Positions 197 to 63,418 are shown, counted from the first letter of the stretch. The stretch is 64,000 bases of DNA from Opitutales bacterium (GCA_021772565.1 JAJFLR010000110.1:1-64000); one strand, 5' to 3'. Translations and numbers: made by a program. Notes: generated by a model from the sequence alone, not told the origin.

Positions 197-2122
197 ATGA
201 AGAAGATTCAAATTGTTACTCCAAATATTTTAATAACGCTTTTATTAATTTCAATCAATAATTTTATTTTAGCGAAATCAACTGTACCGTTTGACAAAGC
301 CACAATTACTAAAGTTGTAAAAAAAGTTGATATTGTTCAAGTACCATCATTAAGGAGAAGCCCGGCGAATATTAACGATGTTTTTCAAGCTCCCAATCTT
401 ATTCAAACCGGTAGAAAATCGCAGGCCCAATTGACATTTCCCGATGGAACGTTGGCCCGAGTAGGTTCCAATACAGTTTGCTCATTTGAATCTGCAATGC
501 GCCAAATAAACCTTGAGCAAGGAAGCATATTATTTAATTCTAAAACCGGCAGAGGCGGTGGTCGTATCGTTACTGCGGCAGCAACTGCATCCGTTTTAGG
601 AACGACTATCATCGTCGCCACAACTCCTGATGGTGGATTTAAACTACTGGTAATTGAAGGAACCGCAAAAGTAGTTTTTTCAGATAATACTCAAAATATT
701 CTAAGTGCCGGCCAAATGACATTTATTTTACCTGGTACAAAAAATCAGTCAGGTGTTAAGAATAGTCCAAATAACAAGGCAGCTCCTCCTCCTGGCACAC
801 CTCCTAACGGATCAGTAAATAATCGCGATAGACCCGGCAAGCCAGGACCCATTCTAAATTTTGATCTAAAAAGGCAAACATCAAACTCTAATTTAGTGCA
901 AGGGTATGGCGTACCGCTACCATCTAGTGAAAAAATCGAAATGGCAGTAAACAAACAAAATAATAAAATTAAAAAAGGTAAATTTGAAGAAACTGACTTA
1001 CTGGTTCTGGATGCTAACGGAGAAGGAGAATTAAAAGTACTTGATCCGACAGTAGTCGAAAATGGCATGCCAACTAGAGAAGAAATTGATCAGGCATTGG
1101 ACAGTGCACTTAAAAGCACAGTTGTATTTAATGACAATGTATTTCCAATGGAAAACATATTTATGAGGGAAAAAATAAGGCCGGAAATGAGTTCTTTTTT
1201 AGCATCAGCCGGAGATGGAGAATATGAGGGATTTATCGGTGGTGATGTAACTATTAACTTTAACGAACTTAATTTTAATACATTAGATGGTCCCAATACA
1301 CTTGATTTTGCCGTCAATAATATGCTTACCATCAATAATAATGTAGCGTTTACAGGATTCAATCAAACTAGAGAGTTTAATATTACCTACGATCAGTTAG
1401 CTTTTAAAACTGACACTGGAATTTCTGTCAATTTCACTCCCCTGCAACAAATGGATCAAATACCAACAGGAATGGGAATGGGGCAAATGCCAACTACCCA
1501 GCAAACTTCTATCTTTAAGTTTATTTCTTCAGGAATTACCAACCTGAATCAAAATAATTTTAATGTGGATAACGGTAGTTTTACTATGCAAAATATTGAT
1601 GGAGATTTGAATTGGAATACTGGTAATGTAAATTTGAATGGTAGTGGTGGTGATTTTGAAATAGCCGCTGATAATTCAATCAATGTCGATAACCTAGGTG
1701 TTAATTCATCAATTCCCAACTCAACTCCTACAGCAATAGTACGACTTTTTTCTAAAGTAATTAATCTCACTAATTCTAACATTAATACAGTAAATATAGA
1801 GGCCAAGAGACCAATGAATAGACAGCAAGCTACAGATATTGCTTTTAGAAATATTACCCTGGCTAACACAATGAATGTAAATCTGGAAGCTAATACGATT
1901 ACACTATTAAATATTAATTTCCTGCAAGGATCTATGGTAAATTTAAGATCTGTACAAGGACAACTTGCGGCAAATCCTAACACAAATGCTACAGTTCAAC
2001 CGGGATTTGTTAATTTTGTAAATAACGTTACCTATAATAACGAACCTGCGCAAAACCATGTTTCAATTGCTAATGGTGGCACTGGGTTACAAGCAGAAAA
2101 TATCATTATTGGCACATTATAA
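197..2122 (+). CDS. secreted FecR-domain protein with long Asn-rich C-terminal region
   Basis: 641 residues. Residues 1-26 form a signal peptide (KK, hydrophobic core, cleavage near ILA-KS). Residues of about 55-165 match a FecR-type domain: an 'F-P-D-G-T-x-A-R-V-G' strand, 'Q-G-S-I-L-F' and an 'I-E-G-T-A-K-V' strand are recognisable. A Pro/Gly/Asn linker follows, and the last 300 residues are Asn-rich and beta-prone (many N-x-x-N/D strands), resembling adhesin-like helical surface proteins but with no named domain. FecR domains in Gram-negatives often sit in anti-sigma factors. In this standalone secreted form, without a transmembrane helix or sigma partner, an envelope-structural or ligand-binding role is more likely. 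It stands alone, convergent with the reductase gene that ends at 2148. Confidence 0.72.
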   Translation: MKKIQIVTPNILITLLLISINNFILAKSTVPFDKATITKVVKKVDIVQVPSLRRSPANINDVFQAPNLIQTGRKSQAQLTFPDGTLARVGSNTVCSFESAMRQINLEQGSILFNSKTGRGGGRIVTAAATASVLGTTIIVATTPDGGFKLLVIEGTAKVVFSDNTQNILSAGQMTFILPGTKNQSGVKNSPNNKAAPPPGTPPNGSVNNRDRPGKPGPILNFDLKRQTSNSNLVQGYGVPLPSSEKIEMAVNKQNNKIKKGKFEETDLLVLDANGEGELKVLDPTVVENGMPTREEIDQALDSALKSTVVFNDNVFPMENIFMREKIRPEMSSFLASAGDGEYEGFIGGDVTINFNELNFNTLDGPNTLDFAVNNMLTINNNVAFTGFNQTREFNITYDQLAFKTDTGISVNFTPLQQMDQIPTGMGMGQMPTTQQTSIFKFISSGITNLNQNNFNVDNGSFTMQNIDGDLNWNTGNVNLNGSGGDFEIAADNSINVDNLGVNSSIPNSTPTAIVRLFSKVINLTNSNINTVNIEAKRPMNRQQATDIAFRNITLANTMNVNLEANTITLLNINFLQGSMVNLRSVQGQLAANPNTNATVQPGFVNFVNNVTYNNEPAQNHVSIANGGTGLQAENIIIGTL

Positions 2123-2147: not shown

Positions 2148-3389
2148 TTAAGCGTCAATAATGATATCAGTCTTGGGGGCTGAAATACATGTCAGACAAG
2201 TTCCGGTTTCTACATCAATACTCGGTTCGTTGCAATATTTTACCTCCCCCTTTTGAATTGCCGTGATACATGTGCCACAGCTTCCGGCTCGACATCCCGA
2301 GGCGATACTGACATCATTTGCTTCAGCGAATTCTAATAAAGTCTCATGGGCACCATCCCAAATTAATTCTTTGGCGGAACGTTTAAAAGTAACGTCAAAC
2401 TTTTTGGTCACCGACTTATTATTTGGAAAGGGAACTCTTGTTGCTGAAGCTACTTTTTTAACACTCGATGGACCAAACGTTTCAAAGTGAATACGATTAT
2501 CCGGCACACTCCATTCTTTCAACCCGACTGCTAATGACTCCATCATTGGTCCGGGTCCGCAAAAATAGAAATCAAAATTATTGGTCGGTAGAATTTTTTT
2601 CAATAAATTTACGTCAGCTCTTGCACTGTGATTGAAGCAATTATCCTCAATACATTTTTCAGTTGGCTTACTATAACAAACATGAAGATGGATGTTTGAA
2701 TTTTGACGTGCAACATTTTCCATATGTTCTTTCATCACATGTTCTGAGCCGTCTCTAACACCATAAAAAAAATAAATTTCCTGCGTGGAATTATTTTCAG
2801 CCAAATAATTGAGCATGCTCATGACAGGGGTAACTCCGATGCCACCACCAATTAATACAACACCACTTTTACGATTTGAATCCAAATAAAATCTTCCGGA
2901 CGGAGCTTTGACATCAAGAATATCTCCTTCATTTATTTTATCATGAAAATGACTCGATATTCTGCCATTAGGTAATCGCTTTATACTGACACGATAATAA
3001 TCCGGATGCGGTCCATCAGATAAACTGTAACACCTAATCAAGGGTCTGTTCTCCCCCGGGTATTCAATGCTGAAAGTCAAGTATTGTCCGGGTAAAAAAT
3101 TCGGGATTGGTTTTTTATCATGAGGTGCCAAATAAAATGAACAAATATCTTTTGATTCCATAACCTTTTGTTTGACGACAAATTTTCTAACACCTGCCCA
3201 AGCTGCTCCAAATGAATCAGACTTTTTTTGCTCTGAACGAATGTATTCAATTTCAGATTTGAGAAGATCGACTTCCAACGCGTTAACATTTCTGGCAAAA
3301 ATAAAACGATTGATTTGTCCCAATGTAAATAGAGCTAATTGAAAAAATACAATTAGAAGAATAGCCAATCCTATCATTTGCCAGATCAT
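2148..3389 (-). CDS. membrane-anchored FAD/NAD(P) reductase with C-terminal 2Fe-2S ferredoxin domain
   Basis: 413 residues. An N-terminal hydrophobic helix (about 3-25) anchors the protein. An FNR-type FAD domain follows with R-C-Y-S-L-S-D at 119-125, then the NAD(P) domain with G-G-G-I-G-V-T-P at 181-188 and C-G-P-G-P-M-M at 277-283. The C-terminal plant-type 2Fe-2S domain has Cys366, Cys371, Cys374 and a fourth ligand at Cys398 or Cys401. The order anchor-FAD-NAD-2Fe2S is that of class IA oxygenase reductases and the Hcr type; NqrF has the ferredoxin domain first, so this is not NqrF. It would pass electrons from NAD(P)H through FAD to the iron-sulfur cluster and an unknown acceptor. It lies 114 bases upstream, in transcription order, of a position occupied by the barrel gene on the same strand, suggesting a shared redox role. 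Confidence 0.85.
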   Translation of the reverse strand: MIWQMIGLAILLIVFFQLALFTLGQINRFIFARNVNALEVDLLKSEIEYIRSEQKKSDSFGAAWAGVRKFVVKQKVMESKDICSFYLAPHDKKPIPNFLPGQYLTFSIEYPGENRPLIRCYSLSDGPHPDYYRVSIKRLPNGRISSHFHDKINEGDILDVKAPSGRFYLDSNRKSGVVLIGGGIGVTPVMSMLNYLAENNSTQEIYFFYGVRDGSEHVMKEHMENVARQNSNIHLHVCYSKPTEKCIEDNCFNHSARADVNLLKKILPTNNFDFYFCGPGPMMESLAVGLKEWSVPDNRIHFETFGPSSVKKVASATRVPFPNNKSVTKKFDVTFKRSAKELIWDGAHETLLEFAEANDVSIASGCRAGSCGTCITAIQKGEVKYCNEPSIDVETGTCLTCISAPKTDIIIDA

Positions 3390-3503
3390 TTGTGCTTGAA
3401 ATTCGAAATTTGAAATTGGTGATTGGATGACTGATTCATGTTATTAATTCTGTTATGATCATTCCAATCCTAATCTTCCGTGTCAATTTGCAATTTCTAT
3501 TAA

Positions 3504-4883
3504 CTAAAACTTAAACCTTAGCTCCGTTCTCAAGCCAAATGTTTCATCGACTCTCTGACGATAGCCGCCAAATGCATCGATGACTAAAATCATGTGCTGG
3601 TCAAACGCATGTTGAAAGCGAGTTCCGATTGCGGTCGCAGCACCATCAGATCCATCAGTATCTGACCGGGCACCGAATTCAAAAATTACCTGACTTTTGC
3701 GATCGTTGAAAATTTTTTGATAACCTATTGCAGCACCGACTGCTCTGTCTGCTCGATTTCCCAATGCTGCCCCATAATTTCCCAATCCAACTGAGGCAAA
3801 CAATATTCCGGTTTGCCCTAATGGCCCACCTGCTGTAGGTGCTCGTGCTAATGATGAGTATTCATCAACTCCCCAAAATGCATTGAAGTACAATAAATCG
3901 TGAGTGTACGGGGGTGTAAGGGAAAACCGGCCAAAAAACAGTGTTCCATCACTTATGGCAGTCGACTCATTATCTAGCGCAATAGAAGAATTTATGCTCA
4001 ACGTAGTGTTTATATGGCCAAATCTGCGAGTCCCACTCAAGCCAGCATAAAAACCGTCGCCGCCGGTATCGATTGATGCATCAACATAACCGATATCCAA
4101 ATCATATGACCAAACATTGTAATCAGCTGATGTAAGCAAGGCGAATAATTTGGCATTTCTGTCTCGGACATTATTATCGCGGTGAACTTCGTTGAAACCA
4201 AATAGCGCAGTCACTCGAGATGCATTTGAGCCTGCGGCAAAGAGTGAACTTCTGGTGATACCGATTGCATCGATGGTATCGTTAATCATAATCCCGTTCT
4301 GAAAAACTAACTGTTGTCGGCCAACAGAAAACCCATAATCAAAATGTTTGAAATCTTGTAAATCGAGTAATGGAAAAATTTCTCCAAAATCACCTTCAAA
4401 AAATAACGTCTGGACAGATTCATTAAATCCATTGACGTATTCATCTTTTTCAAAATCATAACCACTAAATGTTCCCTCTTCCAGTAAAGGAGTAAAGCCA
4501 ACCAAAATTCTCTCAGTTGGTGTCAAATAAAGATTTCCAAAAACATTGAGATTGTTGACCCACTCAGAATTTGAACCGCTACCGTTATCAAAAGTTTGAA
4601 CAGCAGTTCTATAATCACCGTAAACTATAAAAACCGGCTGCCAGATTGCCCCAGTCATTGTTTCAAACCCAGGATCAATCGGGCCGTTGCCGAGAAATGG
4701 ATTTTGGCCGATCTCAATGATTGGTTTCGGGCGTTCAGGAAATCCTTCGAGTTGTAGTGGTATCGGTTCATCGCTGAATCGACTGGCAGCTCCTCCGGCA
4801 AATAGAGACGAATATACAATTAATATTAATAATGGAATTAATAGAAAAATTCTTTTAAAATAATTATGTATTTTAAATTTCAA
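3504..4883 (-). CDS. predicted outer-membrane beta-barrel protein (porin-like)
   Basis: 459 residues with a signal peptide (1-29, ending around LFA-GG). The remainder is built of alternating polar/aromatic strands (for example 'L-G-N-Y-G-A-A-L-G', 'A-I-G-T-R-F-Q-H') and ends in R-F-K-F. A terminal Phe is the usual BAM recognition signature of outer-membrane barrels. No named porin family is recognised. The gene follows the pentaheme cytochrome gene on the same strand with only 9 bases between them, so the two are almost certainly co-transcribed. A barrel coupled to a multiheme cytochrome suggests either a conduit for electrons or a channel for the cytochrome's substrate. The MtrB family usually has about 25 strands and 650 or more residues, so this is at best a different type. 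Confidence 0.7.
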   Translation of the reverse strand: MKFKIHNYFKRIFLLIPLLILIVYSSLFAGGAASRFSDEPIPLQLEGFPERPKPIIEIGQNPFLGNGPIDPGFETMTGAIWQPVFIVYGDYRTAVQTFDNGSGSNSEWVNNLNVFGNLYLTPTERILVGFTPLLEEGTFSGYDFEKDEYVNGFNESVQTLFFEGDFGEIFPLLDLQDFKHFDYGFSVGRQQLVFQNGIMINDTIDAIGITRSSLFAAGSNASRVTALFGFNEVHRDNNVRDRNAKLFALLTSADYNVWSYDLDIGYVDASIDTGGDGFYAGLSGTRRFGHINTTLSINSSIALDNESTAISDGTLFFGRFSLTPPYTHDLLYFNAFWGVDEYSSLARAPTAGGPLGQTGILFASVGLGNYGAALGNRADRAVGAAIGYQKIFNDRKSQVIFEFGARSDTDGSDGAATAIGTRFQHAFDQHMILVIDAFGGYRQRVDETFGLRTELRFKF

Positions 4884-4892
4884 AATATTTAC

Positions 4893-6980
4893 CTATCGAT
4901 TGTAAGTTAGAGTTCCTTTTTCTTCTCCCGTTATGGTCTTAACTTTTTTACTGGGTGGTGCCATAATTTCTTCTTCTGTCGGTTTTAATTTGATTGATTT
5001 ATCTTCTCCATTTAATGGAAGATCAATGTTCCAGATGAGTTGTGCTCCATTGACTACGCCTTCAGCCACTTCACGCGTTGACATACCGTAATCAAAACCG
5101 ACTCCTTCAATTTCTTTGACTAAATTTACCGGAACCATCTGACAGTAAAATTTTAAATTTACTTTGTATGGACCTTTTGTCAGCTGGCTCTTTTTAATTT
5201 TATAATTTGCCCAACGATGAGATCCAGGTGGTAGTCCACGTGATTGTTTACGCGCTGCAAACGGACGTGCAGTTAGAATTGTCGATCTTGAATCCGGTCT
5301 GATATACGGTAATGGATCGAGAGAATAATTGACGGCTAAAACCTGTTCACGCTCTCCACCTCTGACATTCAATGTTAAAAATTTTGATTGCAGATTAAAT
5401 AAATATTTATCGATTGGTAGTTCCCAATTGTGAACATAAGAAGAATGTATGTCTCTGACGTCACCATTTGGATCGCGATCACCCGAGCGGAAAACCACTT
5501 TACCGGATGCATCGGTTACTGTGACTTCCAATACCATTAGGCGTTCAGCATCAAATCCGGTTGGCGCACCATGGCCATCCGTTCCATTAACAACTTTTAC
5601 GCCGAATTTAATGCCACGATCATTATACTGCTTAACGACAAACTCATTTAACTGAATGGCTCGTCGTAAAATTTGATAACGTTGTAATTCGATTTCACGT
5701 AAAAGTTCAAATTGTCCATCTAGAATTTTTCTGGCTTCATAGCGGTCATCAATATATTTCCAGCTTTGGGGGAATTTATAATCATCCGGTGCATTATTTT
5801 CAAATTCATCTGTTCCCCAACCGGCTTCGACATCAAACTCCAACCAATTTGCCAACGATGCCAACTCCTGAGCTTTGGTGTTGTGAGGAAATATTCCAGG
5901 GTGCACGATTGAATAGTCCGGGCCGGCAAACATATGATTCGTTCGCTTGCGTTCCGGTGTCGGATTCCCGCCGATAATCGCTGCAGGGGCCTTGTCATAA
6001 CCGGATTTCAATCCTGGGATTTTGCCCATGTGACAATCCTGACAGCTTTCACCTCTGGCGGCGGCTGGCGAATTTTTAAATTGAGAAAATGCTTCCTCCA
6101 ATCGAAATCCATTTAACAGATTAACATCGTGACAAGTACCGCAAAATCCCGATGTCGTCATTGCATCAAGTTTGACAACTTCAGTGTGAATATTGCGTCC
6201 CGCTTTACTGCGATCGGTGTTAACTTTATATTTGCTGACCTCTTCCAAAACTTCCTTGAGAACAGTGTTGCCACTCGGCCCGTAAACCGGCTCAAAAATA
6301 TCACCTTCGACAATCGCAGTTCGCCCACTAACTTTTCCATAATTTTGATTCACTCGATGACAAACTATACAAGTAATCCCTTCACGACTTGTAGGATGGC
6401 GATCAAGATTACTCATAAATACCGGTTCTTCTAACTGCATACCAACTTGCGTGTGGCATCGTATACAAAAGTCACCATTTGTTCCGGTTGTTTGTTTTAC
6501 TATAGTCGCATGCATTGCATTAAAAACCGGACTGAGTTGAGCATATGCATGTGCGGAAACAGACCATTCGCGATAATGATCAGGATGACACGTTGCACAA
6601 GTAGTAGCAGATGGAAATTTATTTTCTAAAAACAATGCTTCGTGCGCATCGGCCCCAACTTCTTTTGGTGTAGCTTCTTTTTTAGGTTCATCTTCCGTGG
6701 CGAGCAGATCATTTACAGATTCATCACCGCCCAATAAACTATCGCTATCGCCGCTCAATAAATCATCAGATTCACCACCGAGTAAGTCGTCGCCACTAGA
6801 TTTTAATAAACTGTCATCACTATCTCCACCTAGAAGGTCATTAGAATTGCTGTCACTGAGTAAGTCGTTACTGCCGTCATCGAGTAGCAAATCGTCGGAG
6901 TCAGAGTATACATTCTTCAGTACAGCCGTAATTGCTATGAGGGTTACGAGAAAAACTAAAAATAAGTTATTTTTAAACAT
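4893..6980 (-). CDS. pentaheme c-type cytochrome with acidic DLL-repeat N-terminus
   Basis: 695 residues. A signal peptide (1-26) is followed at residues 27-97 by an acidic low-complexity stretch with eight Asp/Asn/Ser-x-Leu-Leu units (SDDLL, SNDLL, GDDLL, DSLL and similar) separated by Gly/Ser. Five CxxCH heme sites follow: CATCH (from Cys128), CIRCH, CIVCH, CGTCH and CQDCH, the last near residue 315. The spacing and the 'H-x-x-W' after the first site resemble the cytochrome c554-like families. Residues of about 420-695 carry no heme site and look beta-rich. It is expected to be periplasmic or surface-attached. It is first of a minus-strand unit with the barrel gene 9 bases downstream, and diverges from the tetraheme cytochrome at 7251. 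The repeats recur in the decaheme protein at 11350. Enzymatic activity is unknown. Confidence 0.86.
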   Translation of the reverse strand: MFKNNLFLVFLVTLIAITAVLKNVYSDSDDLLLDDGSNDLLSDSNSNDLLGGDSDDSLLKSSGDDLLGGESDDLLSGDSDSLLGGDESVNDLLATEDEPKKEATPKEVGADAHEALFLENKFPSATTCATCHPDHYREWSVSAHAYAQLSPVFNAMHATIVKQTTGTNGDFCIRCHTQVGMQLEEPVFMSNLDRHPTSREGITCIVCHRVNQNYGKVSGRTAIVEGDIFEPVYGPSGNTVLKEVLEEVSKYKVNTDRSKAGRNIHTEVVKLDAMTTSGFCGTCHDVNLLNGFRLEEAFSQFKNSPAAARGESCQDCHMGKIPGLKSGYDKAPAAIIGGNPTPERKRTNHMFAGPDYSIVHPGIFPHNTKAQELASLANWLEFDVEAGWGTDEFENNAPDDYKFPQSWKYIDDRYEARKILDGQFELLREIELQRYQILRRAIQLNEFVVKQYNDRGIKFGVKVVNGTDGHGAPTGFDAERLMVLEVTVTDASGKVVFRSGDRDPNGDVRDIHSSYVHNWELPIDKYLFNLQSKFLTLNVRGGEREQVLAVNYSLDPLPYIRPDSRSTILTARPFAARKQSRGLPPGSHRWANYKIKKSQLTKGPYKVNLKFYCQMVPVNLVKEIEGVGFDYGMSTREVAEGVVNGAQLIWNIDLPLNGEDKSIKLKPTEEEIMAPPSKKVKTITGEEKGTLTYNR

Positions 6981-7092
6981 TCAACCTATTTAAGACTAGA
7001 TAGCACAATTATTAATTAGTGATGCATATGTAATGATAATAATTTCATAATTTGCAAGTGCATAGTAAATCAAATTATATAATCTCTATCCC

Positions 7093-7152
7093 TATCGGTA
7101 TCGCAATCGGAATCGGTGCCGAATTTAATCGAATGTGAATGCGATACAGATA
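7093..7152. repeat. TATCGGTATCG inverted repeat, copy 1
   Basis: The 11-mer TATCGGTATCG at 7093-7103 is matched by CGATACAGATA at 7142-7152, which is its reverse complement with one mismatch. The loop between carries further ATCGG-like units. The same 11-mer, with a perfect partner arm, occurs at 22583-22616. The copy here lies in the 270-base region between two divergent cytochrome genes, so it could overlap a control region. Confidence 0.6.
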
Positions 7153-7250
7153 TCCAAACCGATTCAAATATTTATCAATAGTTTTTTATTGAAAAAAAAA
7201 TTGAAAGCCAAGATATTGTAACTTTCTTAAAAAATTTAAACCGAATTGTC

Positions 7251-8261
7251 ATGAAAGTTTCAGATAAAATTAAATTTCTCTTGTCGTTTATAGCTCTTTT
7301 CAACCTTACCTATGCCGGACCAAATTTGGATCAATCAAAAGTAATGGGGCCGGAATCATGCGGCGAATGTCACACCAATGAAGTTGAAGTCTGGAAAAAG
7401 ACCCATCATGCAACAACTATTGATCGTATGCACCGGACTGATGCGGCCAAAGAAATCGCGGAAAAAATGGGCATTCGCAGAATTAAGTCTGAGAGTTTAT
7501 GCGTCGAGTGTCATTATACCAATAAACAGACCACTGATTTAAAATCTGAATTAATTGCAGGTATTTCTTGCGAATCATGTCACGGAGAGGCCAGAGATTG
7601 GATTGATATTCATAATGACTACGGAGACGGGGCAAAAAAAGAAACAGAATCTGCTGAACATAAAGCAGCTCGTATTGAAAAAGCGATTTTAGGGGGCATG
7701 AAAAATCCGAGAGATTTACACGAAGTTGCTTCCAATTGTTTTCAATGTCACCTTGTTCCCAACGAAAAATTAGTCAATGTCGGTGGGCACACAGCAGGAA
7801 GTGCCGGCTTCGATTTAGTTGCCTGGTTGCACGGTGAAGTCAGACATAATTTCCTACGCACAGGGGATAAAGCGAATGCTGACAATAGTATCGAGAGTAA
7901 ACGTGAACTCTTCGTTTTGGGAATTATATTAGATTTGGAAAACAGTTTACGAGGCACAGCAATTGCGACGCAAAAAGCCACTTATGGTATAACGATGGCC
8001 AAGCGTTCTGCCAAAGTTTTAGCTAAACTCGGACAGATACAACAAATTGCCCCGACAAAAGAAGTCGAAGCAATTTTAGGTATTGTCGATAAAAGCATGC
8101 TAAAATTAAATAACAAAGAGCAATTGACCAGTGTCGCTGAAAAAGTTGCGGTGCAAGGAAAATTGTTCGCCAAGAATGGTAGTGGTAAATCACTGGCAGC
8201 TCTAGATAAATATGTCCCTAAAGCTGAGAAGTACAAGGGCGAAGTTTTTGGGGCAGAGTGA
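7251..8261 (+). CDS. tetraheme cytochrome c554-like protein
   Basis: 336 residues. A signal peptide (about 1-22, ending T-Y-A-G) is followed by four CxxCH sites: CGECH, CVECH, CESCH and CFQCH. Extra conserved His residues (K-T-H-H-A-T after the first site and G-G-H-T after the fourth) are likely distal ligands. Heme number, spacing and length resemble the cytochrome c554 family, whose founding member takes electrons from hydroxylamine oxidoreductase in Nitrosomonas; no such oxidoreductase is visible here. The C-terminal 120 residues are helical and lack heme sites. It is probably a soluble periplasmic electron carrier serving the neighbouring redox genes. It diverges from the pentaheme gene and lies 443 bases before the ferredoxin-fusion gene. 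Confidence 0.85.
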   Translation: MKVSDKIKFLLSFIALFNLTYAGPNLDQSKVMGPESCGECHTNEVEVWKKTHHATTIDRMHRTDAAKEIAEKMGIRRIKSESLCVECHYTNKQTTDLKSELIAGISCESCHGEARDWIDIHNDYGDGAKKETESAEHKAARIEKAILGGMKNPRDLHEVASNCFQCHLVPNEKLVNVGGHTAGSAGFDLVAWLHGEVRHNFLRTGDKANADNSIESKRELFVLGIILDLENSLRGTAIATQKATYGITMAKRSAKVLAKLGQIQQIAPTKEVEAILGIVDKSMLKLNNKEQLTSVAEKVAVQGKLFAKNGSGKSLAALDKYVPKAEKYKGEVFGAE

Positions 8262-8704
8262 TTGTGTTTTGAAGTAGCTTGTAGGTTGTAGGTGTGAATA
8301 CAAAATAATACTGTTGGCTAAGTAGAGATTGTTTAAATACCCGTTGCAAAAATATTTGAGGCGTCAGCACTATTTGGAGTGCGGCGACATGGCTCCGCTT
8401 TTCGAACAAATTGAATGAATCGTTGGATTCAAAATACAACTTTGAAATTTAGAGAAGTGTAACCCGTATCGTTAAAAAGCGGTGCTAAATCACGCAATCC
8501 AAGGAAGCTGCGCTTCGGAAAAATCATTTCCCTATTCCCTACCCGCTACAACCGACAAATTACTACCTAAAAAGCGTCTCTGCGCGAGATAAAAATCTTT
8601 GTAGTTAACAATCATCACTTAAGATAAATATCTTTGACTTCATGTTCGGCTGCAACTTAGATAGAACTCAAAAGCAAGGTTAACTTATTTTTATCAATTA
8701 GGAT
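8262..8704. other. 443-base intergenic region with repeat-like islands
   Basis: No convincing gene is present. The region holds a GC-richer composite element at about 8360-8520 (listed separately) and, near 8571-8600, a segment reading 'gcgtctctgcgcgag' that resembles the 'ctctgcgcctctgg' segment at about 21229-21243. The last 100 bases before the ferredoxin-fusion gene are AT-rich and presumably contain its promoter, but no clear -35/-10 pair could be picked. Confidence 0.5.
8360..8520. repeat. composite dispersed-repeat-like element
   Basis: This island is GC-richer than its flanks. It contains the hairpin GCACT-ATTTGG-AGTGC (8367-8382) and a distant inverted pair CCGCTTTT (8395-8402) / AAAAGCGG (8475-8482). 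The two half-units ('cagcactatttggagtgcgg' and 'agcggtgctaaatcacgc') resemble, from memory, halves of dispersed repeats found in Verrucomicrobiota-type genomes. Only one copy is in this window, so the repeat status is inferred. Confidence 0.4.
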
Positions 8705-10444
8705 ATGGTCGAAACAGGAGATGGATCAAATAACGTAACTCGAATACCCCGACCGCAAAGGTGGGATGATCCTTTCTCTAGTGAAATGACTAATGAGGAT
8801 GTCGATAAAGTTCTCGAAACAACTTACTTCTCCGCAATAGATCCAAATCGATTTCCGCAGAATATAACATTGCGAGATGTTGTACTCAATGATTGTCGAG
8901 TTTGCGAATTTGATAAAGGGGAAATTATAGTTCGTGAAGGTGACTACGGCAGCTCAGCTTTTTATATTTTATCAGGGAAAGTAAAAGTCTTATTCAAAGA
9001 TTTGCCTGCAGAAATGCTGGGTCGAAGTAAGCCGAGGAAAAAAAGTCTTATGCAAGCCATTACTCAAAGTTTAAAAAAATCGCCTTACCCTGAAAGTAGA
9101 GATTATGAAAACAAACAAAGTCGTTCATCATCTGATGGATCTCAGGGATCAATTACGAAACAAACTGGCTTTAATATTTTTCTACAAGATATACCCGGAG
9201 TCCTTGATGAGGAACATACTGATACAATGATTGAGGGTGAAGTATTTGGAGAACTGGGTGCCCTCGCCCGCACACCCAGAACGGCAACAATTATAGCAGA
9301 AGAACAATCGACACTTTTAGAAATTCGCTGGCAAGGATTGAGAGAATTAAGAAATTATGCTCCGGAACTCAAAAAGCATATCGATTCCCTTTATCGCGAC
9401 AGGAGCCTGGTAACTCATTTTCGCAATACTCATTTTTTAGCTAATCTACCAGATGATGCTCTTCAAAAAGTTGCTGATGAAACACAGTTCTTAACTATCG
9501 GAAATTTTGACTGGTATTCTCAATACAAATCAAAAATGAATGCGACATCTAGTGAACGATTAAAAATTGAACCTGTAATTGCCGCAGAAGGTGATTATCC
9601 CAATGGTATATACCTAATTCGTAATGGATTCGCCCGTGTGAGCAAAAAATATAATCATGGGGAAAGAACTATTAGTTATCTGGGTAAAGGTGATTTATTT
9701 GGTCTTCCGGAGCTATTGAAAAATTGGCTCAAAAATGATACAACTACAATGCAGCAAACGCTAAGAGCAGTTGGATATGTTGATGTTCTTTTTATCCCCA
9801 CATCGACAGTCGAACAATATATTTTAAACTATTGGGATAGAAATGAACTTGAGCAATTGGTGGAACAAACAATGACATCTGTTACGGCTGATTTAGAAAA
9901 AGGAAAGTTAAACGACGAAACGTTAGAATTTTTAGTTGAAAACAGGTTTATTAATGGAAGCGCAACAATGCTGATTGATATGAATCGATGCACACAATGC
10001 GATGACTGCGTACGAGCATGTGCCTCAACTCATGATAGCAACCCAAGATTTGTTCGTAATGGCCCGGTTGTAGATCATGTCATGATAGCAAATGCCTGTA
10101 TGCATTGTATAGATCCGGTGTGCATGATTGGTTGCCCGACCGGAGCAATTCATAGAAATTCTGCTGAAGGACAAGTCGTAATCAACGATGACACGTGTAT
10201 CGGTTGTTCAACGTGCGCTAACAGCTGTCCCTATCATAATATTCAGATGGTCTCTATCCAGGACAGAAAGGGGCAATTAATACTGAGCGAAGAATCCGGG
10301 GTACCTATTCAAAAAGCAACAAAATGTGATCTATGCGTTGAACAGTTAGGTGGCCCGGCTTGTGCCAGAGCTTGTCCACACGATGCAATGATTAGAGCTG
10401 ACATGAAAGATTTTTCCAGTCTAACTCGCTTCTTCAATCGATAA
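8705..10444 (+). CDS. two cyclic-nucleotide-binding domains fused to a four-cluster ferredoxin
   Basis: 579 residues, no signal peptide, so cytoplasmic. The first CNB-like domain spans about 60-225 and is interrupted by a charged insert of roughly 75 residues; its phosphate-binding-cassette-like segment reads G-E-V-F-G-E-L-G-A-L-A-R. A second, more degenerate CNB domain spans about 245-390 (E-G-D-Y-P-N-G-I-Y near its start). From Cys429 a ferredoxin of the HybA/DmsB type follows with CxxCxxCxxxC, CxxCxxxxCxxxC, CxxCxxCxxxC and CxxCx7CxxxC sets, enough for four 4Fe-4S clusters. CNB domains gate or allosterically control partner domains, so electron flow could respond to cNMP or another small ligand. 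Its stop codon abuts the start of the membrane-protein gene, suggesting the ferredoxin docks on that partner. Confidence 0.88.
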   Translation: MVETGDGSNNVTRIPRPQRWDDPFSSEMTNEDVDKVLETTYFSAIDPNRFPQNITLRDVVLNDCRVCEFDKGEIIVREGDYGSSAFYILSGKVKVLFKDLPAEMLGRSKPRKKSLMQAITQSLKKSPYPESRDYENKQSRSSSDGSQGSITKQTGFNIFLQDIPGVLDEEHTDTMIEGEVFGELGALARTPRTATIIAEEQSTLLEIRWQGLRELRNYAPELKKHIDSLYRDRSLVTHFRNTHFLANLPDDALQKVADETQFLTIGNFDWYSQYKSKMNATSSERLKIEPVIAAEGDYPNGIYLIRNGFARVSKKYNHGERTISYLGKGDLFGLPELLKNWLKNDTTTMQQTLRAVGYVDVLFIPTSTVEQYILNYWDRNELEQLVEQTMTSVTADLEKGKLNDETLEFLVENRFINGSATMLIDMNRCTQCDDCVRACASTHDSNPRFVRNGPVVDHVMIANACMHCIDPVCMIGCPTGAIHRNSAEGQVVINDDTCIGCSTCANSCPYHNIQMVSIQDRKGQLILSEESGVPIQKATKCDLCVEQLGGPACARACPHDAMIRADMKDFSSLTRFFNR

Positions 10445-11253
10445 TGAGTATAAAAAAACGACGCATAATAAATTCTATTATTTTAATTGGATCTTCGATT
10501 ATTGTTTATCTCATTAACAAGATTTTTAAAATATCATTAGTAGATGCAGCTCGTTATTCGGGATTCTTACTGATCGGGTTAGTCTTTTTTCTGACATTAT
10601 TTAATGCGCGAAAAAAATTTCCCGGAATCCCGTTATTAAAAGTTTCAACGTGGACCCAAATCCATATTTATCTGGGATTTTTTTGTGTCTTTATTTTTTT
10701 TCTGCATATCGACTTTTCTTTGCCAAACGGAATCTTTGAAATATCACTTGCTCTAATTTTTTTAGCGGTAGCGGTCAGTGGAGTCATAGGATTGATAATT
10801 ACACGATGGTTACCGCGACACATGATTGATGCAGGAGAACCTCTTATTTACGAAATGATCCCAACCTACCGCAGAAAAGTGCTTGAGGAAGTAAAAGAAT
10901 TAGTTCTACAAGCAGAACGAGAGCTGAAATCATCAACAATTGGTGATCTTTATGTTAATTCATTAATTACCTATTTTCAAAATACACCGGGAATATTGCA
11001 GGCATTTTTTCTAAAGGCTGCGAATTATCGCAATGCGATTGAAAGTGTAAGATCCAATCAACGTTACATGGATACTGATGAAACTAAATATTCTACCAAG
11101 CTACTTGAATTATTAAAAATAAAAAGGAATATCGATATACAAGATTCGAGCCAACGGTTATTAAAAAAGTGGCTGTTTATACATATTCCACTGTCATACT
11201 CATTGATTATACTCAGTCTAGTACATGCTTTTTTTGCACTAAGATATAGCTAA
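10444..11253 (+). CDS. polytopic membrane protein, likely di-heme cytochrome b-type subunit
   Basis: 269 residues with about five membrane helices (near 8-28, 36-54, 74-92, 97-118 and 244-264). Two helices carry paired His residues 14 apart: H-I-Y-L...F-L-H in the third, and H-I-P-L...L-V-H in the last. This spacing is that of bis-His b-heme ligands on one helix, so it may hold two b hemes across the inner membrane. A soluble charged segment (about 125-235) separates the pairs. No named family is recognised. It starts one base before the end of the ferredoxin-fusion stop codon and precedes the decaheme gene by 96 bases, so it could link cytoplasmic iron-sulfur clusters or the quinone pool to periplasmic hemes. 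The heme assignment is inferred from the His spacing only. Confidence 0.68.
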   Translation: MSIKKRRIINSIILIGSSIIVYLINKIFKISLVDAARYSGFLLIGLVFFLTLFNARKKFPGIPLLKVSTWTQIHIYLGFFCVFIFFLHIDFSLPNGIFEISLALIFLAVAVSGVIGLIITRWLPRHMIDAGEPLIYEMIPTYRRKVLEEVKELVLQAERELKSSTIGDLYVNSLITYFQNTPGILQAFFLKAANYRNAIESVRSNQRYMDTDETKYSTKLLELLKIKRNIDIQDSSQRLLKKWLFIHIPLSYSLIILSLVHAFFALRYS

Positions 11254-11349
11254 ATTTAGTTTAATAAAACCAATGACCGCTGTAATAACAAAATGGAGAA
11301 ATAGATTATCAAGATAATGTAATATCAATATTAATTTTCTAAACGATAA

Positions 11350-13734
11350 GTGAAAAAATTTCAACCAGTCAATCATCAGGAAACAACTTACAATCGACCC
11401 AATGACAAATGGTTATGCGGGCGATTAAAAGACGGTTGCCCATGTAGATTTGGCCCGAGTCAGGATGGTAAATGCCGCTCGACAACAGAATGTGTACCCA
11501 TAATAAAAAATGGTGAGTGGTTTTGCACACGAAATAAAAATGATGGTGGTAAATGCCCAAACGGCCCTACTCCAGACGGGAAATGCTGTATCAATAAAGC
11601 ACCGTGCAATCCAACACGCAACCTTAGAAGCTTTAGGGGACTATTAACTATAGGGTGTATAATTGCTACAGTCGCTATGCTCTTGGTAATTTTAAATATT
11701 AGACAGAATAATAAATATATTAATCCGGGTCCATTAACTTACGCGCATGCTCAAACCGAACAACAGTGTAGCGCATGTCACATATTTCAAGCAGATGATG
11801 TTCATTTTAATAGTAACAATCATGCTGATGGCCAACGTTGTTTAAGTTGCCATGATATAGGATCCAATGCATTTCATGCACATGGGTTACCAAAAGAAAA
11901 ACTGAGTGAATTAAATTCTAGTAGAACTCAAAATACTGATTCACAAACGGCTTCATTATTTCTCAAATTGGCGAAGAATGAAAATTTGATAGAACAGGGA
12001 TTGTCAGGAGATTTATCATGTAACACCTGTCATAAAGAGCATCATGGACGTAATAATAATTTATCGAATCTAACCAACCAGCAATGCCAAATTTGCCATG
12101 AACAACAGTTTGAAAGTTTAGCAAATGGCCATCCTGAATTTACTCAATATCCCTATCAAAAAAGAACGGCAATTATTTTTGACCATGATTCTCATTTGAA
12201 TGAGCATTTTTTAAATGATAAGAATAAGGAGCTGGCACCGACGTCTTGTGCAAGTTGTCACAGTCTGGATATTAGTGGCCGCTCAATGTTGACACAAAGT
12301 TTTGAGCGGAGTTGTGCCTCATGTCATGCAGATCAAATAAGTGGTGCAGGACGTGCAGGTGAGCTGGGGTTAGAGTTTTTCAAAGTACCCAGCCTGGATG
12401 TCGTAACACTGAAAGAAAATGGGATATCAATTGGTGATTGGCCAGAATATGCAGAAGGAACAATAACGCCATTTATGATATTTTTATTAAAAGATAAATA
12501 TATTGACCAAAAGAATTTAAATAAAATTGGTAAACTAGATATGCTTGATTTACGAAATGCTTCTAATGAAGAATTATTAGTTGCTGAAAAATATGCCTGG
12601 GCTATTAAAGAATTATTATTTGATCTATTGGTCAATGGCCATGAGTTACTGGCAGACAGAATTTCAAAAAATAACCCAATTAGAAATAGTAAAGATTTTT
12701 TGGATAATAGAATGGCTGCTAGTTTATCGTTTGAAATTATATCTGCTGTTCAGAAAAATTGGTTTCCTGACTTGGTTGAAGAAGTTCCAAATTATAGAAA
12801 AGGAATAAAACCAATATTAAAGAATGCTAAAGACTTAACAGAAAATTCTCCAATAGAGAGTGAAACTGTAAATCTGGATTTAAATTCCGAGAATATTGAA
12901 AACAACGATAGTCTAATCGATTTAAATGATAGTACTAGCGATCTGTTGGAACTGGATGAGTCGAATAACGATTCTAATTTATTGGGTGAGAGTTCAACTG
13001 AAAATTCTGATTTATTGCTAAATGATAATCTTGATGAAAATTTATTAACCGAAATTGACGATGATAATACCTTATTAGATGAGAATAAATTATTGGATAC
13101 AGATTTAGATTCTGAGGAATTGACCACTAATAATAGCGACAGTAATTTCTCAACTCAAGCAACAGACAATGTAGAAATAAAGCCAAATGACTCATGGGTT
13201 TCGTTCGGTGGCTGGTATAGAAATGACAGTAACTATACATTACATTATCGACCAACAGGACACGAGGACACATTTATAAAATCCTGGGTAGATATTAGTA
13301 TGCAAAATAAATCAAATTATAAAATGTTTAGTAAACTGATGAATAAAGATTCAGTTGGGCAATGCTCAAAATGTCATTCAGTCGATAAAATTAATGATGA
13401 AACTTTTAAGGTAAACTGGTTGGCAGCAAGTATTCAAAAAAATAGTTATGATTTTAATAAATTTAAGCATGCTCCTCATATCAAAAGTGCTAACAATAAT
13501 ACATGCGTTACTTGCCATAAAATTGATTCTCAAATTAACTATGCAAAATCATTTCAGAAAAATAATGATCCACATAAGTTTTTGAGTAATTTTAGTCCAA
13601 TGCTTAAAAACGCATGCACCGAATGTCATAAACCAGATGTCACTTCAGATAGTTGCTTGCAGTGCCATAAATACCATGCCGGAAATTTTATTGCAAATTT
13701 TGCCAGGAACGCTGAATTATTAAAAGGTAATTAA
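11350..13734 (+). CDS. membrane-anchored decaheme c-type cytochrome with Cys-rich N-terminus and DLL spacer
   Basis: 794 residues, GTG start. Residues 20-95 hold a Cys-rich cytoplasmic-side domain made of two related units of the form W/F-x-C-x-R-(x)n-C-P-x-G-P-x-x-D-G-K-C. A membrane helix follows at about 97-118. Six CxxCH sites lie from Cys140 to about residue 326, then a helical region, then an acidic spacer (about 515-600) rich in S/D/N-x-L-L units, and four more sites from Cys672 to Cys769, giving ten hemes. The N-in topology places the hemes in the periplasm. The spacer resembles the N-terminal repeats of the pentaheme protein at 4893. It lies between the cytochrome-b-like gene and an outer-membrane barrel gene 24 bases downstream, suggesting it carries electrons across the periplasm. 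It is an electron carrier; the partner and substrate are unknown. Confidence 0.87.
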   Translation: MKKFQPVNHQETTYNRPNDKWLCGRLKDGCPCRFGPSQDGKCRSTTECVPIIKNGEWFCTRNKNDGGKCPNGPTPDGKCCINKAPCNPTRNLRSFRGLLTIGCIIATVAMLLVILNIRQNNKYINPGPLTYAHAQTEQQCSACHIFQADDVHFNSNNHADGQRCLSCHDIGSNAFHAHGLPKEKLSELNSSRTQNTDSQTASLFLKLAKNENLIEQGLSGDLSCNTCHKEHHGRNNNLSNLTNQQCQICHEQQFESLANGHPEFTQYPYQKRTAIIFDHDSHLNEHFLNDKNKELAPTSCASCHSLDISGRSMLTQSFERSCASCHADQISGAGRAGELGLEFFKVPSLDVVTLKENGISIGDWPEYAEGTITPFMIFLLKDKYIDQKNLNKIGKLDMLDLRNASNEELLVAEKYAWAIKELLFDLLVNGHELLADRISKNNPIRNSKDFLDNRMAASLSFEIISAVQKNWFPDLVEEVPNYRKGIKPILKNAKDLTENSPIESETVNLDLNSENIENNDSLIDLNDSTSDLLELDESNNDSNLLGESSTENSDLLLNDNLDENLLTEIDDDNTLLDENKLLDTDLDSEELTTNNSDSNFSTQATDNVEIKPNDSWVSFGGWYRNDSNYTLHYRPTGHEDTFIKSWVDISMQNKSNYKMFSKLMNKDSVGQCSKCHSVDKINDETFKVNWLAASIQKNSYDFNKFKHAPHIKSANNNTCVTCHKIDSQINYAKSFQKNNDPHKFLSNFSPMLKNACTECHKPDVTSDSCLQCHKYHAGNFIANFARNAELLKGN

Positions 13735-13758
13735 ATTACCTAATTATTAAAAAGCGCT

Positions 13759-14757
13759 ATGAAAATTCTGATTATATTAATAACGGTAAGTTATTTTTCT
13801 ATCCAAATGGTTGGCCAGGTAGAATCATCGATAGATAATGTGGACAAAGAACTTCGAAACGATTCTCAAAAATTACCATTAATCAATCAGACCATCGAAG
13901 AAACTGCACCCCAAATCCTGGAAGATGAATTATTTGATTTAGGTCCTCAATTTTTGCTAAAGGAAAAACAAAAGCGTTTTAATTTTTTATTTGAATCAGA
14001 ACTTAGATTTTCAGTCTCAAGTAATACCACTTTCGTAGAAGATGATCCGGATTCCTCAACATTAACTATTTTCTCTAATACTCTCTCAATTGCTCCATCA
14101 GCTACAAAGAGCTGGAATAGTGGAAATTTGTCCCTGAAAGCTGGACTTCGATATCAATTTTTCAGATATGGATTATTAAGCGATGATAATAAACTTGTAA
14201 GCAATTTAGCTGTCGACAGTAACGACTTTGACACATTTGTCCCTTTCGCTAACATTAATTATTTAAGAAAGAACTTTTTTTCATCATTGTCTTTACGCTA
14301 TCTCAATATTGAAAATCGAGCTACTGATTCACATTCCTATAACGAAATTGTTCCATACTGGACGGCCGGATTATTTTACAATCTATCAATAAACCAAAGT
14401 CTATTGATAAAATATGATGGAAACTGGAGAGAAACTGATACCGAGTCAGCAGGCTTACAAGCAGATGGCTGGAATGATCGATCAGATCACGCAATTTCAT
14501 TAATCTATAGAATATCAAAAGGTAAATTAATATTTGAGCCGTCAATCCGTTTTCAATATTCCAAGTACACATATTCAACCAGAGATAGAGATGATTATTA
14601 TGCCGGAATTTCAGGAAGTGCTTATTACAGTATAAACCAATTTTTAACATTGAGAGTATTTTCTACCTATGAGTTTAGAGAAAGTAGTGAAACCACAACA
14701 GCAGATTATGAGTTGGGTGAAATTGGATTAAATCTAAATGCAAATTTTCGCTTCTAA
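13759..14757 (+). CDS. predicted outer-membrane beta-barrel protein
   Basis: 332 residues with a signal peptide (about 1-20). After an acidic linker, the protein is a series of amphipathic strands ('F-L-F-E-S-E-L-R-F-S-V', 'L-S-L-K-A-G-L-R-Y-Q-F') ending in N-A-N-F-R-F, with the terminal Phe typical of outer-membrane barrels. By length it would have 12-14 strands. It resembles the TIGR/DUF-type outer-membrane beta-barrel proteins found in Verrucomicrobiota, but no specific family is certain. It follows the decaheme gene by 24 bases and is probably in its operon, making a second cytochrome-plus-barrel pair in this block. Confidence 0.7.
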   Translation: MKILIILITVSYFSIQMVGQVESSIDNVDKELRNDSQKLPLINQTIEETAPQILEDELFDLGPQFLLKEKQKRFNFLFESELRFSVSSNTTFVEDDPDSSTLTIFSNTLSIAPSATKSWNSGNLSLKAGLRYQFFRYGLLSDDNKLVSNLAVDSNDFDTFVPFANINYLRKNFFSSLSLRYLNIENRATDSHSYNEIVPYWTAGLFYNLSINQSLLIKYDGNWRETDTESAGLQADGWNDRSDHAISLIYRISKGKLIFEPSIRFQYSKYTYSTRDRDDYYAGISGSAYYSINQFLTLRVFSTYEFRESSETTTADYELGEIGLNLNANFRF

Positions 14758-14790: not shown

Positions 14791-15723
14791 ATGATTGAAA
14801 ATGATTTAATTCTTAATACCGCCAATCAGCAGTTAGATCAATTTATTAATTTTCTTTCATTGGAACGCAGATTGTCAAAATACACTACGCGAAATTACAA
14901 ACATGCGATTGAAGTATTTTTCATCTGGTTATTAAAACAGTATGACTGGCAAGGCAACACTAACGACATACCTCTAAGAGCCCCGCGTGATTATTTAATA
15001 GAACAACAGCGAATGCTTTCACGAAGAACAATCCATAACCATTTATCAGCCCTTCGAATGTTTTATAAATATTTAATTAAACATAACAGTGTGGCCAGGA
15101 ATCCTTTTAGCGGACTCATCCTGCCCAAACTAAATAAACCACTACCCAAATTTATGACTGAACAGCAAATAATTGATTTATTGAGTGGCCCGATTAAATT
15201 GCTGGAGAAAAAATCAATCAAATCCTTTCAAGCATGGAGAGATAAACTTATGTTGGAATTACTTTATGGAGGTGGATTAAGAGTAAGTGAACTCTCCGAT
15301 TTAAATTATGGCATGATCGATTTCAAATCGGGTGTTGCTCGTATCTATGGTAAAGGAAAAAAAGAAAGGCTATGTCCGTTGGGAAAAGCCTCAATGATTT
15401 GTTTAAATCATTTTCAAAAAAATCATGCAAAGCTTACAGGCATTGATGATCCGGTATTAATCAATAATCAATTTAGGCGCTTAAGTGTAAGACAAATTCA
15501 ATTAATATTAAAAAAATATTTAGCATTATCCGAATTACCGATGGACATGTCACCTCATAAAATCAGGCATTCGTATGCAACACATCTATTAAATAACGGT
15601 GCTGATCTCAGGCTAGTGCAGGATTTACTGGGGCATGAAAGTTTATCAACAACACAAGTCTATACTCACGTTAGTGTTGCTCGCTTAAAAGAAGCGCATA
15701 AAAAAGCTCACCCACGAGCCTAA
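14791..15723 (+). CDS. xerC: tyrosine recombinase XerC/XerD
   Basis: 310 residues, the normal Xer length. The N-terminal SAM-like DNA-binding domain covers about 12-105. The catalytic domain has all expected residues: Arg in G-G-L-R-V-S-E-L, Lys in G-K-G-K-K-E-R, His/Arg in [12 protein letters not shown], His in L-L-G-H-E-S and the nucleophile Tyr in Q-V-Y-T-H-V. It resolves chromosome dimers at dif with a partner Xer protein and FtsK, and an FtsK is encoded at 36130. XerC versus XerD cannot be decided from one copy. The TAA stop overlaps the stop codon of the convergent gene at 15720. No dif-like site or prophage genes surround it. Confidence 0.92.
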
Positions 15724-62353: not shown

Positions 62354-63418
62354 ATGAGAAAAAAACGAACTACATTACAACCGTTTAGCTTATCCTTTCT
62401 CGACTGTATTTGCTGTGGATTTGGGTCTGTAATATTATTGTTTGTTTTAACCAGTGGCCGAAAAGCAGAATCCCGTCAAAGCGAACTCTCAGATGTTAAC
62501 ATTGATTTGGGTGCGCTTAAAAATGAGCTGGAGGAAGTAAAAGACGAACATTTAAAAATAAATAGTAAAAATGATTCGTTAAGTGAGCTGCTGGCAAAAA
62601 TTAAAGCTAAGAAGCAAACAATTGCTCTATCGTTAGAGGACAAAAATAAAGCCCTTCAGTTGGCTCTGAAGGATCAAGCTTCACTCGATGAATCTTTGAA
62701 GAAGCTTTTAGACAAATTAGAACATATGCCCAAAACTGAAGAACCTCCAGCAATTCCATTTCCCAATCCGGTTAAAAGACAATATATGACAGATTTTAAA
62801 CTCGATGGAAACCGTGTGCTCATTCTATTGGAAGCATCCGGTGGCATGCTGGATTTAGATGTTGATTCAGTAATTGATCGACTCTCTGACGATGATGTAA
62901 AAAAAAGAGAGGCACCCAAATGGAAACGTGCTGTAAAAGCTACTGAATGGTTAATATCATCTCTGCATTCAAGTTCGCGTTATCAGGTAATGGTATTTAA
63001 TAAAAATGCCAAAACTATTCTATCTGAAAGCAATCCCGAATGGCTTGATTTAAAAGATCGAAAAACTACAACAAACGTTATTGATGCACTCAATAACCTT
63101 GTCCCTCAAGGTGGGGCAAATCTTGAACGCGCATTCAATACAATTCACAGTATGTCCGAGCGACCGGATAATATTATTTTAATAACCGACGGACTGCCCA
63201 CATTGAGTGATTCAGTTGAAAGTGGATCGACCATTGACGAAGCACGACGGATTCGAATGTACAGTGTGGCAAAAAAACGAATCTTAAATCGGGTTCCAAT
63301 AAATATTATTTTATTTCCCATGAGTGGCGATCCATCAGCAGCCGCACTCTATTGGGTATTGGCAACTAAAACCAAAGGATCATTTATTTGTCCATCTAAA
63401 AATTGGCCGGAGACATGA
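62354..63418 (+). CDS. VWA-domain membrane protein with degenerate MIDAS
   Basis: 354 residues. The N-terminus 'F-L-D-C-I-C-C-G-F-G-S-V-I-L-L-F' is a membrane segment shared with the next gene. A coiled coil (about 45-125) follows and a von Willebrand A domain from about 150. The metal-binding D-x-S-x-S is E160-A-S162-G-G164, so two positions have changed; the later L-I-T-D-G-L-P (Asp279) is intact. The pairing resembles exported MotB/ExbD-like neighbours in verrucomicrobia and planctomycetes. Its stop overlaps the next gene by 4 bases. Confidence 0.78.
   Translation: MRKKRTTLQPFSLSFLDCICCGFGSVILLFVLTSGRKAESRQSELSDVNIDLGALKNELEEVKDEHLKINSKNDSLSELLAKIKAKKQTIALSLEDKNKALQLALKDQASLDESLKKLLDKLEHMPKTEEPPAIPFPNPVKRQYMTDFKLDGNRVLILLEASGGMLDLDVDSVIDRLSDDDVKKREAPKWKRAVKATEWLISSLHSSSRYQVMVFNKNAKTILSESNPEWLDLKDRKTTTNVIDALNNLVPQGGANLERAFNTIHSMSERPDNIILITDGLPTLSDSVESGSTIDEARRIRMYSVAKKRILNRVPINIILFPMSGDPSAAALYWVLATKTKGSFICPSKNWPET

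What the first reader, a model, noticed from the sequence alone, without database searches (positions are those of the whole stretch)
2148..14757. Two-strand redox block with two cytochrome-plus-outer-membrane-barrel pairs
Within 12.6 kb there are an NAD(P)H-type FAD/2Fe-2S reductase, a pentaheme and a tetraheme cytochrome, a cyclic-nucleotide-sensing ferredoxin, a b-type-like membrane protein, a decaheme cytochrome and two C-terminal-Phe barrels. Each larger cytochrome abuts a barrel gene (9 and 24 bases). Seen: heme motifs (5+4+10=19), Fe-S motifs, spacing. Known: porin-cytochrome units move electrons across the outer membrane in other bacteria. Inferred: this may be a route between cytoplasm/quinone pool and the cell surface, of a layout I do not recognise from the Mtr or Pio systems.
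Basis: partly seen in the sequence, partly recalled or inferred. Interest (0 to 1): 0.78.

Follow-up and report, generated by a model that had tools for sequence, protein, structure and literature searches.

The report
PCC4-type porin-cytochrome electron conduit
This Verrucomicrobiota genome carries a gene cluster that probably moves electrons between NAD(P)H in the cytoplasm and the cell surface; it matches "PCC4", a conduit predicted from other bacteria in 2017 but not known to me to have been tested, and its relatives add a likely cyclic-nucleotide control and swappable outer-membrane parts.

Summary
In detail: all eight ORFs, heme counts (5+4+10) and gaps (9 and 24 bases) are as described. 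The layout is not new: the 4-, 5- and 10-heme cytochromes, one porin, and a 4Fe-4S gene directly upstream of a membrane protein with two WX3HX13H motifs and an SGXXG motif are the published features of the putative cluster PCC4, subgroup II (PMC5566968). I file it as a Verrucomicrobiota member of PCC4. The order RED-C554-CNF-CYB-DECA, or the same genes with C554 divergent, recurs in about 80 loci from Verrucomicrobiota, Planctomycetota and Hydrogenedentota. Only PENTA-BAR1 behaves as an outer-membrane unit: adjacent in 14 of 14 loci, also without the rest. The second pair is doubtful: the decaheme protein is anchored in the inner membrane, and homologs of its barrel sit beside a FecR gene in all nine other loci. 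Most likely mechanism: NAD(P)H -> FAD/2Fe-2S -> cyclic-nucleotide-regulated 4x[4Fe-4S] protein -> diheme b -> decaheme -> tetraheme -> pentaheme/porin, direction unproven. Unreported as far as I found: an eight-cysteine cytoplasmic domain on the decaheme, a cyclase link, and exchange of the outer module for a porin plus a giant decaheme LVIVD protein.

The parts
2148..3389 (-). RED: membrane-anchored NAD(P)H-type FAD/NAD/2Fe-2S reductase, 413 aa
   Evidence: Pfam hits; invariant FAD/NAD motif residues and ferredoxin-domain Cys (C366, C371, C374, C401 among them) in 13 relatives
3504..4883 (-). BAR1: outer-membrane beta-barrel, 459 aa, TTG start, C-terminal Phe
   Evidence: no Pfam or PDB sequence hit; AF2 pLDDT 56, about 17 strands, Foldseek best OprD/AlgE-type channels; beside PENTA in 14 of 14 loci
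4893..6980 (-). PENTA: pentaheme cytochrome plus C-terminal Ig-like region, family of ExtKL and T. tepidum c552
   Evidence: 5 CXXCH; profile match to 5ze8 E=1e-12, second region colinear; NF040886 ExtKL 9.4e-10, below cut-off
7251..8261 (+). C554: periplasmic tetraheme cytochrome, 336 aa
   Evidence: PF13435 1.7e-15; 4 CXXCH; four heme Cys-pair motifs aligned in 14 relatives
8705..10444 (+). CNF: cyclic-nucleotide-binding protein with four [4Fe-4S] sites, 579 aa
   Evidence: PF00027 1.6e-29, PF13247 9e-10; 16 cluster Cys and the phosphate-cassette residues E183 and R192 invariant in 17 relatives
10444..11253 (+). CYB: inner-membrane diheme-b protein (PCC4 'IMP'), 269 aa
   Evidence: two WX3HX13H motifs (W70, W243) and [ST]GXXG (112) in 17 of 17 sequences
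11350..13734 (+). DECA: inner-membrane-anchored decaheme cytochrome with cytoplasmic N-terminal Cys-rich domain, 794 aa, GTG start
   Evidence: 10 CXXCH and 8 N-terminal Cys invariant in 17 relatives; N-terminal model pLDDT 82 with a helix at 92-124
11350..11640 (+). Eight-cysteine N-terminal domain of DECA, two tandem W-C...C..GP...G.C...C.P units, about residues 14-97
   Evidence: C23, C32, C42, C48, C59, C69, C79, C86 invariant in 42 sequences; no Pfam family, no PDB sequence or fold match
13759..14757 (+). BAR2: small beta-barrel (BBP2_2), 332 aa; probably part of a FecR/cyclase module rather than the decaheme's porin
   Evidence: homologs beside FecR in 9 of 9 other loci
197..2122 (+). 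FECR: FecR-domain protein at the contig end, tail to tail with RED, 25 bases apart; likely regulatory neighbour
   Evidence: PF04773 1.7e-12; FecR and CHASE2/class III cyclase genes recur beside relatives of the cluster

Best explanation
The locus is a PCC4-type (subgroup II) electron conduit. An inner-membrane module (RED, CNF, CYB, DECA) carries electrons between NAD(P)H and the periplasm through FAD, 2Fe-2S, four [4Fe-4S], two heme b and ten heme c, probably without needing quinone. C554 relays them through the periplasm, and PENTA hands them to, or takes them from, the outside at BAR1. CNF is probably switched by a cyclic nucleotide made by a CHASE2-type cyclase; FecR and BAR2 probably belong to that sensing part. 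Shown: gene content, cofactor ligands, conserved order and the PENTA-BAR1 unit. Inferred: assembly, order of carriers, gating, direction (I favour export to extracellular acceptors, weakly), and independence from quinone.
For: Every PCC4-II feature that could be tested is met, apart from helix count (inconclusive) and the position of RED (met in relatives only); see membership. Order RED-C554-CNF-CYB-DECA across three phyla. In the same 388 genomes DECA occurs in 17, PENTA in 7, both in 4 (Fisher p=8e-5, not corrected for kinship). PENTA-BAR1 adjacent in 14 of 14 loci; in G021, which lacks the core, the pair sits next to a single protein fusing a ferric-reductase transmembrane domain (PF01794 6e-14) to FAD/NAD/2Fe-2S domains, which ties NAD(P)H -> heme b directly to this outer module. 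CNF keeps its cyclic-nucleotide cassette, and cyclase-like genes lie in 20 of 91 loci against about 1.6 expected from the window genome's CHASE2 density (a rough expectation, loci not independent).
Against: No experiment exists here. BAR1 models, at low confidence, as an 18-strand channel that may be too narrow to hold a pentaheme protein. CYB could also react with quinone, as He et al. proposed. No cyclase is visible next to this copy: the contig ends at FECR, and none of the genome's four CHASE2 genes could be joined to it. Several relatives have the core with no outer-membrane module in view.
Confidence: 0.65

Rival explanations
1. Electron uptake: extracellular donors such as Fe(II) are oxidised at PENTA-BAR1 and electrons run inward to quinone or NAD(P)+, as He et al. 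proposed for PCC4. (Same conduit, opposite direction.)
For: PCC4 was found in iron-oxidiser genomes and modelled inward. This genome has three heme-copper oxidase genes above cut-off, so inward electrons could go to O2.
Against: A conserved NAD(P)H-type reductase and the fused ferric-reductase version in G021 fit outward flow more simply, and NAD+ reduction from Fe(II) is uphill (established energetics).
Confidence: 0.3
2. Periplasmic reductase with a substrate channel: PENTA is an enzyme (for oxyanions such as selenite, or sulfur species) fed by NAD(P)H, and BAR1 is the channel that lets the substrate in; nothing crosses the outer membrane as bare electrons.
For: PENTA belongs to the family of ExtKL and MccSep-like proteins; loss of the ExtKL-neighbour porin ExtI impairs selenite/tellurite reduction (PMC5877670); BAR1 looks like an OprD/AlgE-type channel.
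Against: ExtHIJKL is also treated as an outer-membrane electron conduit (PMC6148476); invariant His beyond the CXXCH motifs (H113, H144, H265, H349 and others) could serve as distal ligands of all five hemes, which does not suggest an open catalytic heme, though this is not proven. The alternative outer module has an extra decaheme protein with its own porin.
Confidence: 0.27
3. One reading: two cytochrome-barrel conduits, PENTA-BAR1 and DECA-BAR2, working side by side.
For: Tight spacing; in Opitutae a different, larger porin (BARG) directly follows DECA.
Against: DECA is anchored in the inner membrane with a cytoplasmic domain; BAR2 homologs lie in the opposite orientation beside FecR in 9 of 9 other loci and are absent from most loci with DECA.
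Confidence: 0.08

Closest known systems
PCC4 subgroup II (He et al. 2017, Front Microbiol 8:1584, PMC5566968)
   Same: porin; 4-, 5- and 10-heme cytochromes; membrane protein with two WX3HX13H and SGXXG; pfam13247 Fe-S gene directly upstream of it; redox gene upstream of the tetraheme gene in relatives
   Different: Here in Verrucomicrobiota (the paper's main text names Proteobacteria and Planctomycetes); genes split on two strands; cyclic-nucleotide domains are not mentioned in its main text; FecR and a second barrel flank it
ExtHIJKL outer-membrane conduit of Geobacter sulfurreducens
   Same: pentaheme protein of the PHC family (PMC11976967) encoded with a porin of about 45-50 kDa
   Different: ExtKL model score far below cut-off; no selenocysteine read-through needed; no ExtH/ExtJ; inner-membrane partners differ
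Verrucomicrobia porin-MHC clusters of He et al. 2017 (mSphere, PMC5615132)
   Same: porin plus multiheme cytochrome in Verrucomicrobiota
   Different: that periplasmic cytochrome has 8 hemes; a separate cluster resembling that kind (6-CXXCH membrane, 7-CXXCH and 763-aa barrel-like genes) lies elsewhere in IMCC26134, which also has the core described here (L039)
MtrCAB / PioAB / MtoAB
   Same: decaheme cytochrome and outer-membrane barrels in an electron-transfer cluster
   Different: DECA is inner-membrane anchored and scores 27 bits against 192 for the DmsE/MtrA model; no MtrB family hit
Uet of Ca. Tenderia (described in PMC10734462)
   Same: tetraheme cytochrome and a barrel
   Different: no undecaheme, triheme, NHL or isomerase genes here

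Membership tests
PCC4 subgroup II | porin plus periplasmic cytochromes with 4, 5 and 10 hemes | tested here: met
   barrel nature of BAR1 from a low-confidence model
PCC4 subgroup II | inner-membrane protein with two WX3HX13H motifs and SGXXG | tested here: met
   17 of 17 sequences, S or T accepted at the first SGXXG position
PCC4 subgroup II | inner-membrane protein has five transmembrane helices | tested here: inconclusive
   simple hydropathy gives 4-7 segments, some overlapping
PCC4 subgroup II | pfam13247 Fe-S gene directly upstream of the membrane protein gene | tested here: met
   PF13247 9e-10 in CNF; CNF and CYB overlap by one base
PCC4 subgroup II | redox gene upstream of the tetraheme gene | tested here: inconclusive
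   true in Planctomycetota and L095, L097, L098; in the window RED lies on the other strand beyond PENTA-BAR1
PCC4 subgroup II | sequence homology to the published PCC4 porins | not tested
[quoted passage not shown]
   needs experiment; I found no experimental test of PCC4
ExtKL family (NF040886) | score above the curated cut-off | tested here: not met
   37.6 bits against 250
PHC family in the wide sense (c552, ExtKL) | pentaheme domain plus Ig-like domain, colinear with c552 | tested here: met
   5ze8 E=1e-12, second region weak but colinear
MtrA/DmsE decaheme family (TIGR03508) | score above the curated cut-off | tested here: not met
   27.3 bits against 192.2
Verrucomicrobia porin-MHC (PMC5615132) | eight-heme periplasmic cytochrome next to the porin | tested here: not met
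   no eight-heme cytochrome in the locus;
Functional cyclic-nucleotide-binding domain | phosphate-cassette Glu and Arg | tested here: met
   E183 and R192 invariant in 17

The most novel reading that the evidence does not exclude
The conserved core is a previously undescribed cyclic-nucleotide-gated, quinone-independent NAD(P)H-to-periplasm electron gate. It plugs into interchangeable outer-membrane modules (PENTA-BAR1, or porin BARG plus a giant decaheme LVIVD protein), and the decaheme's eight-cysteine cytoplasmic domain is a new metal or Fe-S domain that docks it to the soluble donors.
Probability: 0.3. Interest if true: 0.75.

Novelty: new member of a known kind. Interest (0 to 1): 0.5.

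Why it matters
PCC4 has been a paper prediction since 2017. Finding its core in many Verrucomicrobiota and Planctomycetota, including the complete genome of strain IMCC26134, widens its reach, shows which parts are constant, and gives a testable idea: extracellular electron exchange drawn from NAD(P)H rather than quinol and switched by a second messenger.

Tried and rejected
(1) Uet of Ca. Tenderia as the match: gene content differs. (2) The Verrucomicrobia porin-MHC clusters of PMC5615132 as the same thing: IMCC26134 carries a separate cluster that fits that description better. (3) Joining the window contig to contig C100, whose end carries a CHASE2 cyclase: no sequence overlap. (4) The PF22678 search of the own genome gave nothing; viral contigs encode no relative of CNF. 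(5) PDB sequence searches with BAR1 and CYB profiles gave no hit. (6) The Foldseek search with the N-terminal DECA domain gave no match better than E=2. (7) DECA as an MtrA-type plug: rejected for its inner-membrane anchor.

Full report
Observation. The cytochromes carry 5, 4 and 10 CXXCH, against a mean of at most 0.05 in shuffled sequences. The window is the left end of contig C13 of a 3.57 Mb draft genome. G200, whose contig has the same length as an 'Opitutae bacterium' record (L037), is listed as same order, so the window most likely comes from an Opitutae genome of Verrucomicrobiota.

Cofactors. RED carries FAD, NAD(P)H and 2Fe-2S domains behind an N-terminal hydrophobic segment. CNF has cyclic-nucleotide domains and 16 invariant Cys, enough for four [4Fe-4S]; Glu183 and Arg192 of its first nucleotide cassette are invariant. 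CYB has four invariant His in two W-X3-H-X13-H motifs and an SGXXG-type motif in 17 of 17 sequences, the ligand set for two heme b. DECA has ten invariant heme motifs, and before its membrane helix a domain with eight invariant Cys in two similar units. The basic residues just before the helix place this domain in the cytoplasm by the positive-inside rule (inference). AF2 gives this part pLDDT 82 with a confident helix, and neither Pfam, PDB sequences nor PDB folds match it.

Conservation. A genome-contig scan with the CNF ferredoxin part (from relative G049) gave at least 556 relatives; the best 80 were kept. Of 91 loci compared, 86 had CNF, 86 DECA, 75 CYB, 74 RED and 72 C554 by BLAST; most loci were selected for CNF or DECA, so it is the co-occurrence of the others that is informative. 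The order is RED-C554-CNF-CYB-DECA in Planctomycetota, Hydrogenedentota and some Verrucomicrobiota; in most Verrucomicrobiota C554 is divergent. In an even sample of 388 genomes of the phylum, DECA was found in 17.

Outer modules. PENTA and BAR1 are neighbours in all 14 loci where PENTA was seen, including three genomes without DECA; one of these BAR1 calls is weak (L147, 41 bits). In one of the three (G021) the neighbour is one polypeptide combining a ferric-reductase membrane domain with FAD/NAD/2Fe-2S domains. About 30 other loci, mainly Opitutae and Akkermansiaceae, instead carry a porin (BARG, about 800 aa) and a protein of about 1300 aa with 10 hemes and LVIVD repeats. PENTA matches the T. 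tepidum pentaheme c552 (5ze8, E=1e-12) over the heme domain and, weakly, a following Ig-like region. That family includes Geobacter ExtKL and was linked to archaeal cytochrome nanowires (PMC11976967). BAR1's model is poor (pLDDT 56) but finds OprD/AlgE-type channels.

The second barrel. BAR2 homologs (21-27% identity) occur in nine other loci, each time beside a FecR gene, in most of them with a CHASE2-cyclase-like gene next. Cyclase-like genes lie in 20 of 91 loci against roughly 1.6 expected from the density of CHASE2 genes in this genome; kinship between loci inflates this, and one of the proteins counted carries GAF instead of CHASE2. Since CNF is a cyclic-nucleotide-binding protein, I read FecR, BAR2 and the cyclase as its sensing and control part. 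In the window FECR lies at the contig end; no cyclase could be placed next to it.

Comparison with the literature. He et al. 2017 (PMC5566968) describe PCC4: a porin, 4-, 5- and 10-heme cytochromes, a membrane protein with two WX3HX13H and SGXXG, and in subgroup II a pfam13247 Fe-S gene upstream of it, in Proteobacteria and Planctomycetes. The window fits. Their main text does not mention cyclic nucleotides or Verrucomicrobia, and they route electrons to quinone. The Verrucomicrobia clusters in PMC5615132 have an 8-heme cytochrome; strain IMCC26134 has such a cluster in addition to the core studied here (L039). The supplements of these papers were not read, so 'not described' means not in the main texts searched.

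Verdict. An ordinary-looking but well-conserved member of a putative conduit class that, as far as I found, is untested, with three leads worth testing: NAD(P)H rather than quinol as partner, cyclic-nucleotide control, and a new eight-cysteine domain.

Noticed in passing
L159:6423-11271 (strain IMCC26134): A 498-aa membrane cytochrome with 6 CXXCH, a 269-aa one with 7 CXXCH and a 763-aa barrel-like gene in a row: probably the porin-MHC cluster type of PMC5615132, separate from the cluster studied.
   Followed up: partly
L149:2-1654 and L150:4254-5450: In genome G169 the CNF homolog carries an extra N-terminal FHA domain; in G358 a Ser/Thr kinase gene lies next to PENTA, hinting at phospho-control.
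   Followed up: no
L024:14639-16600 and 22 other loci: HbpS-like (PF03928) proteins recur near the core cluster in Verrucomicrobiota.
   Followed up: no
window 12850-13170 and 4893-6980 (N-terminal part of PENTA): DECA's middle linker and PENTA's N-terminus both hold acidic 'DDLLGGD'-like repeats; similar repeats occur in L095 and L100.
   Followed up: no
window 62354-63418 and the gene after it (L128:2355-4414): Two tandem related genes whose products hold an 'SFLDCICCGFG'-like motif near the N-terminus.
   Followed up: no
window 14791-15723: A XerC/D-like tyrosine recombinase gene follows BAR2 by 33 bases on the same strand.
   Followed up: no
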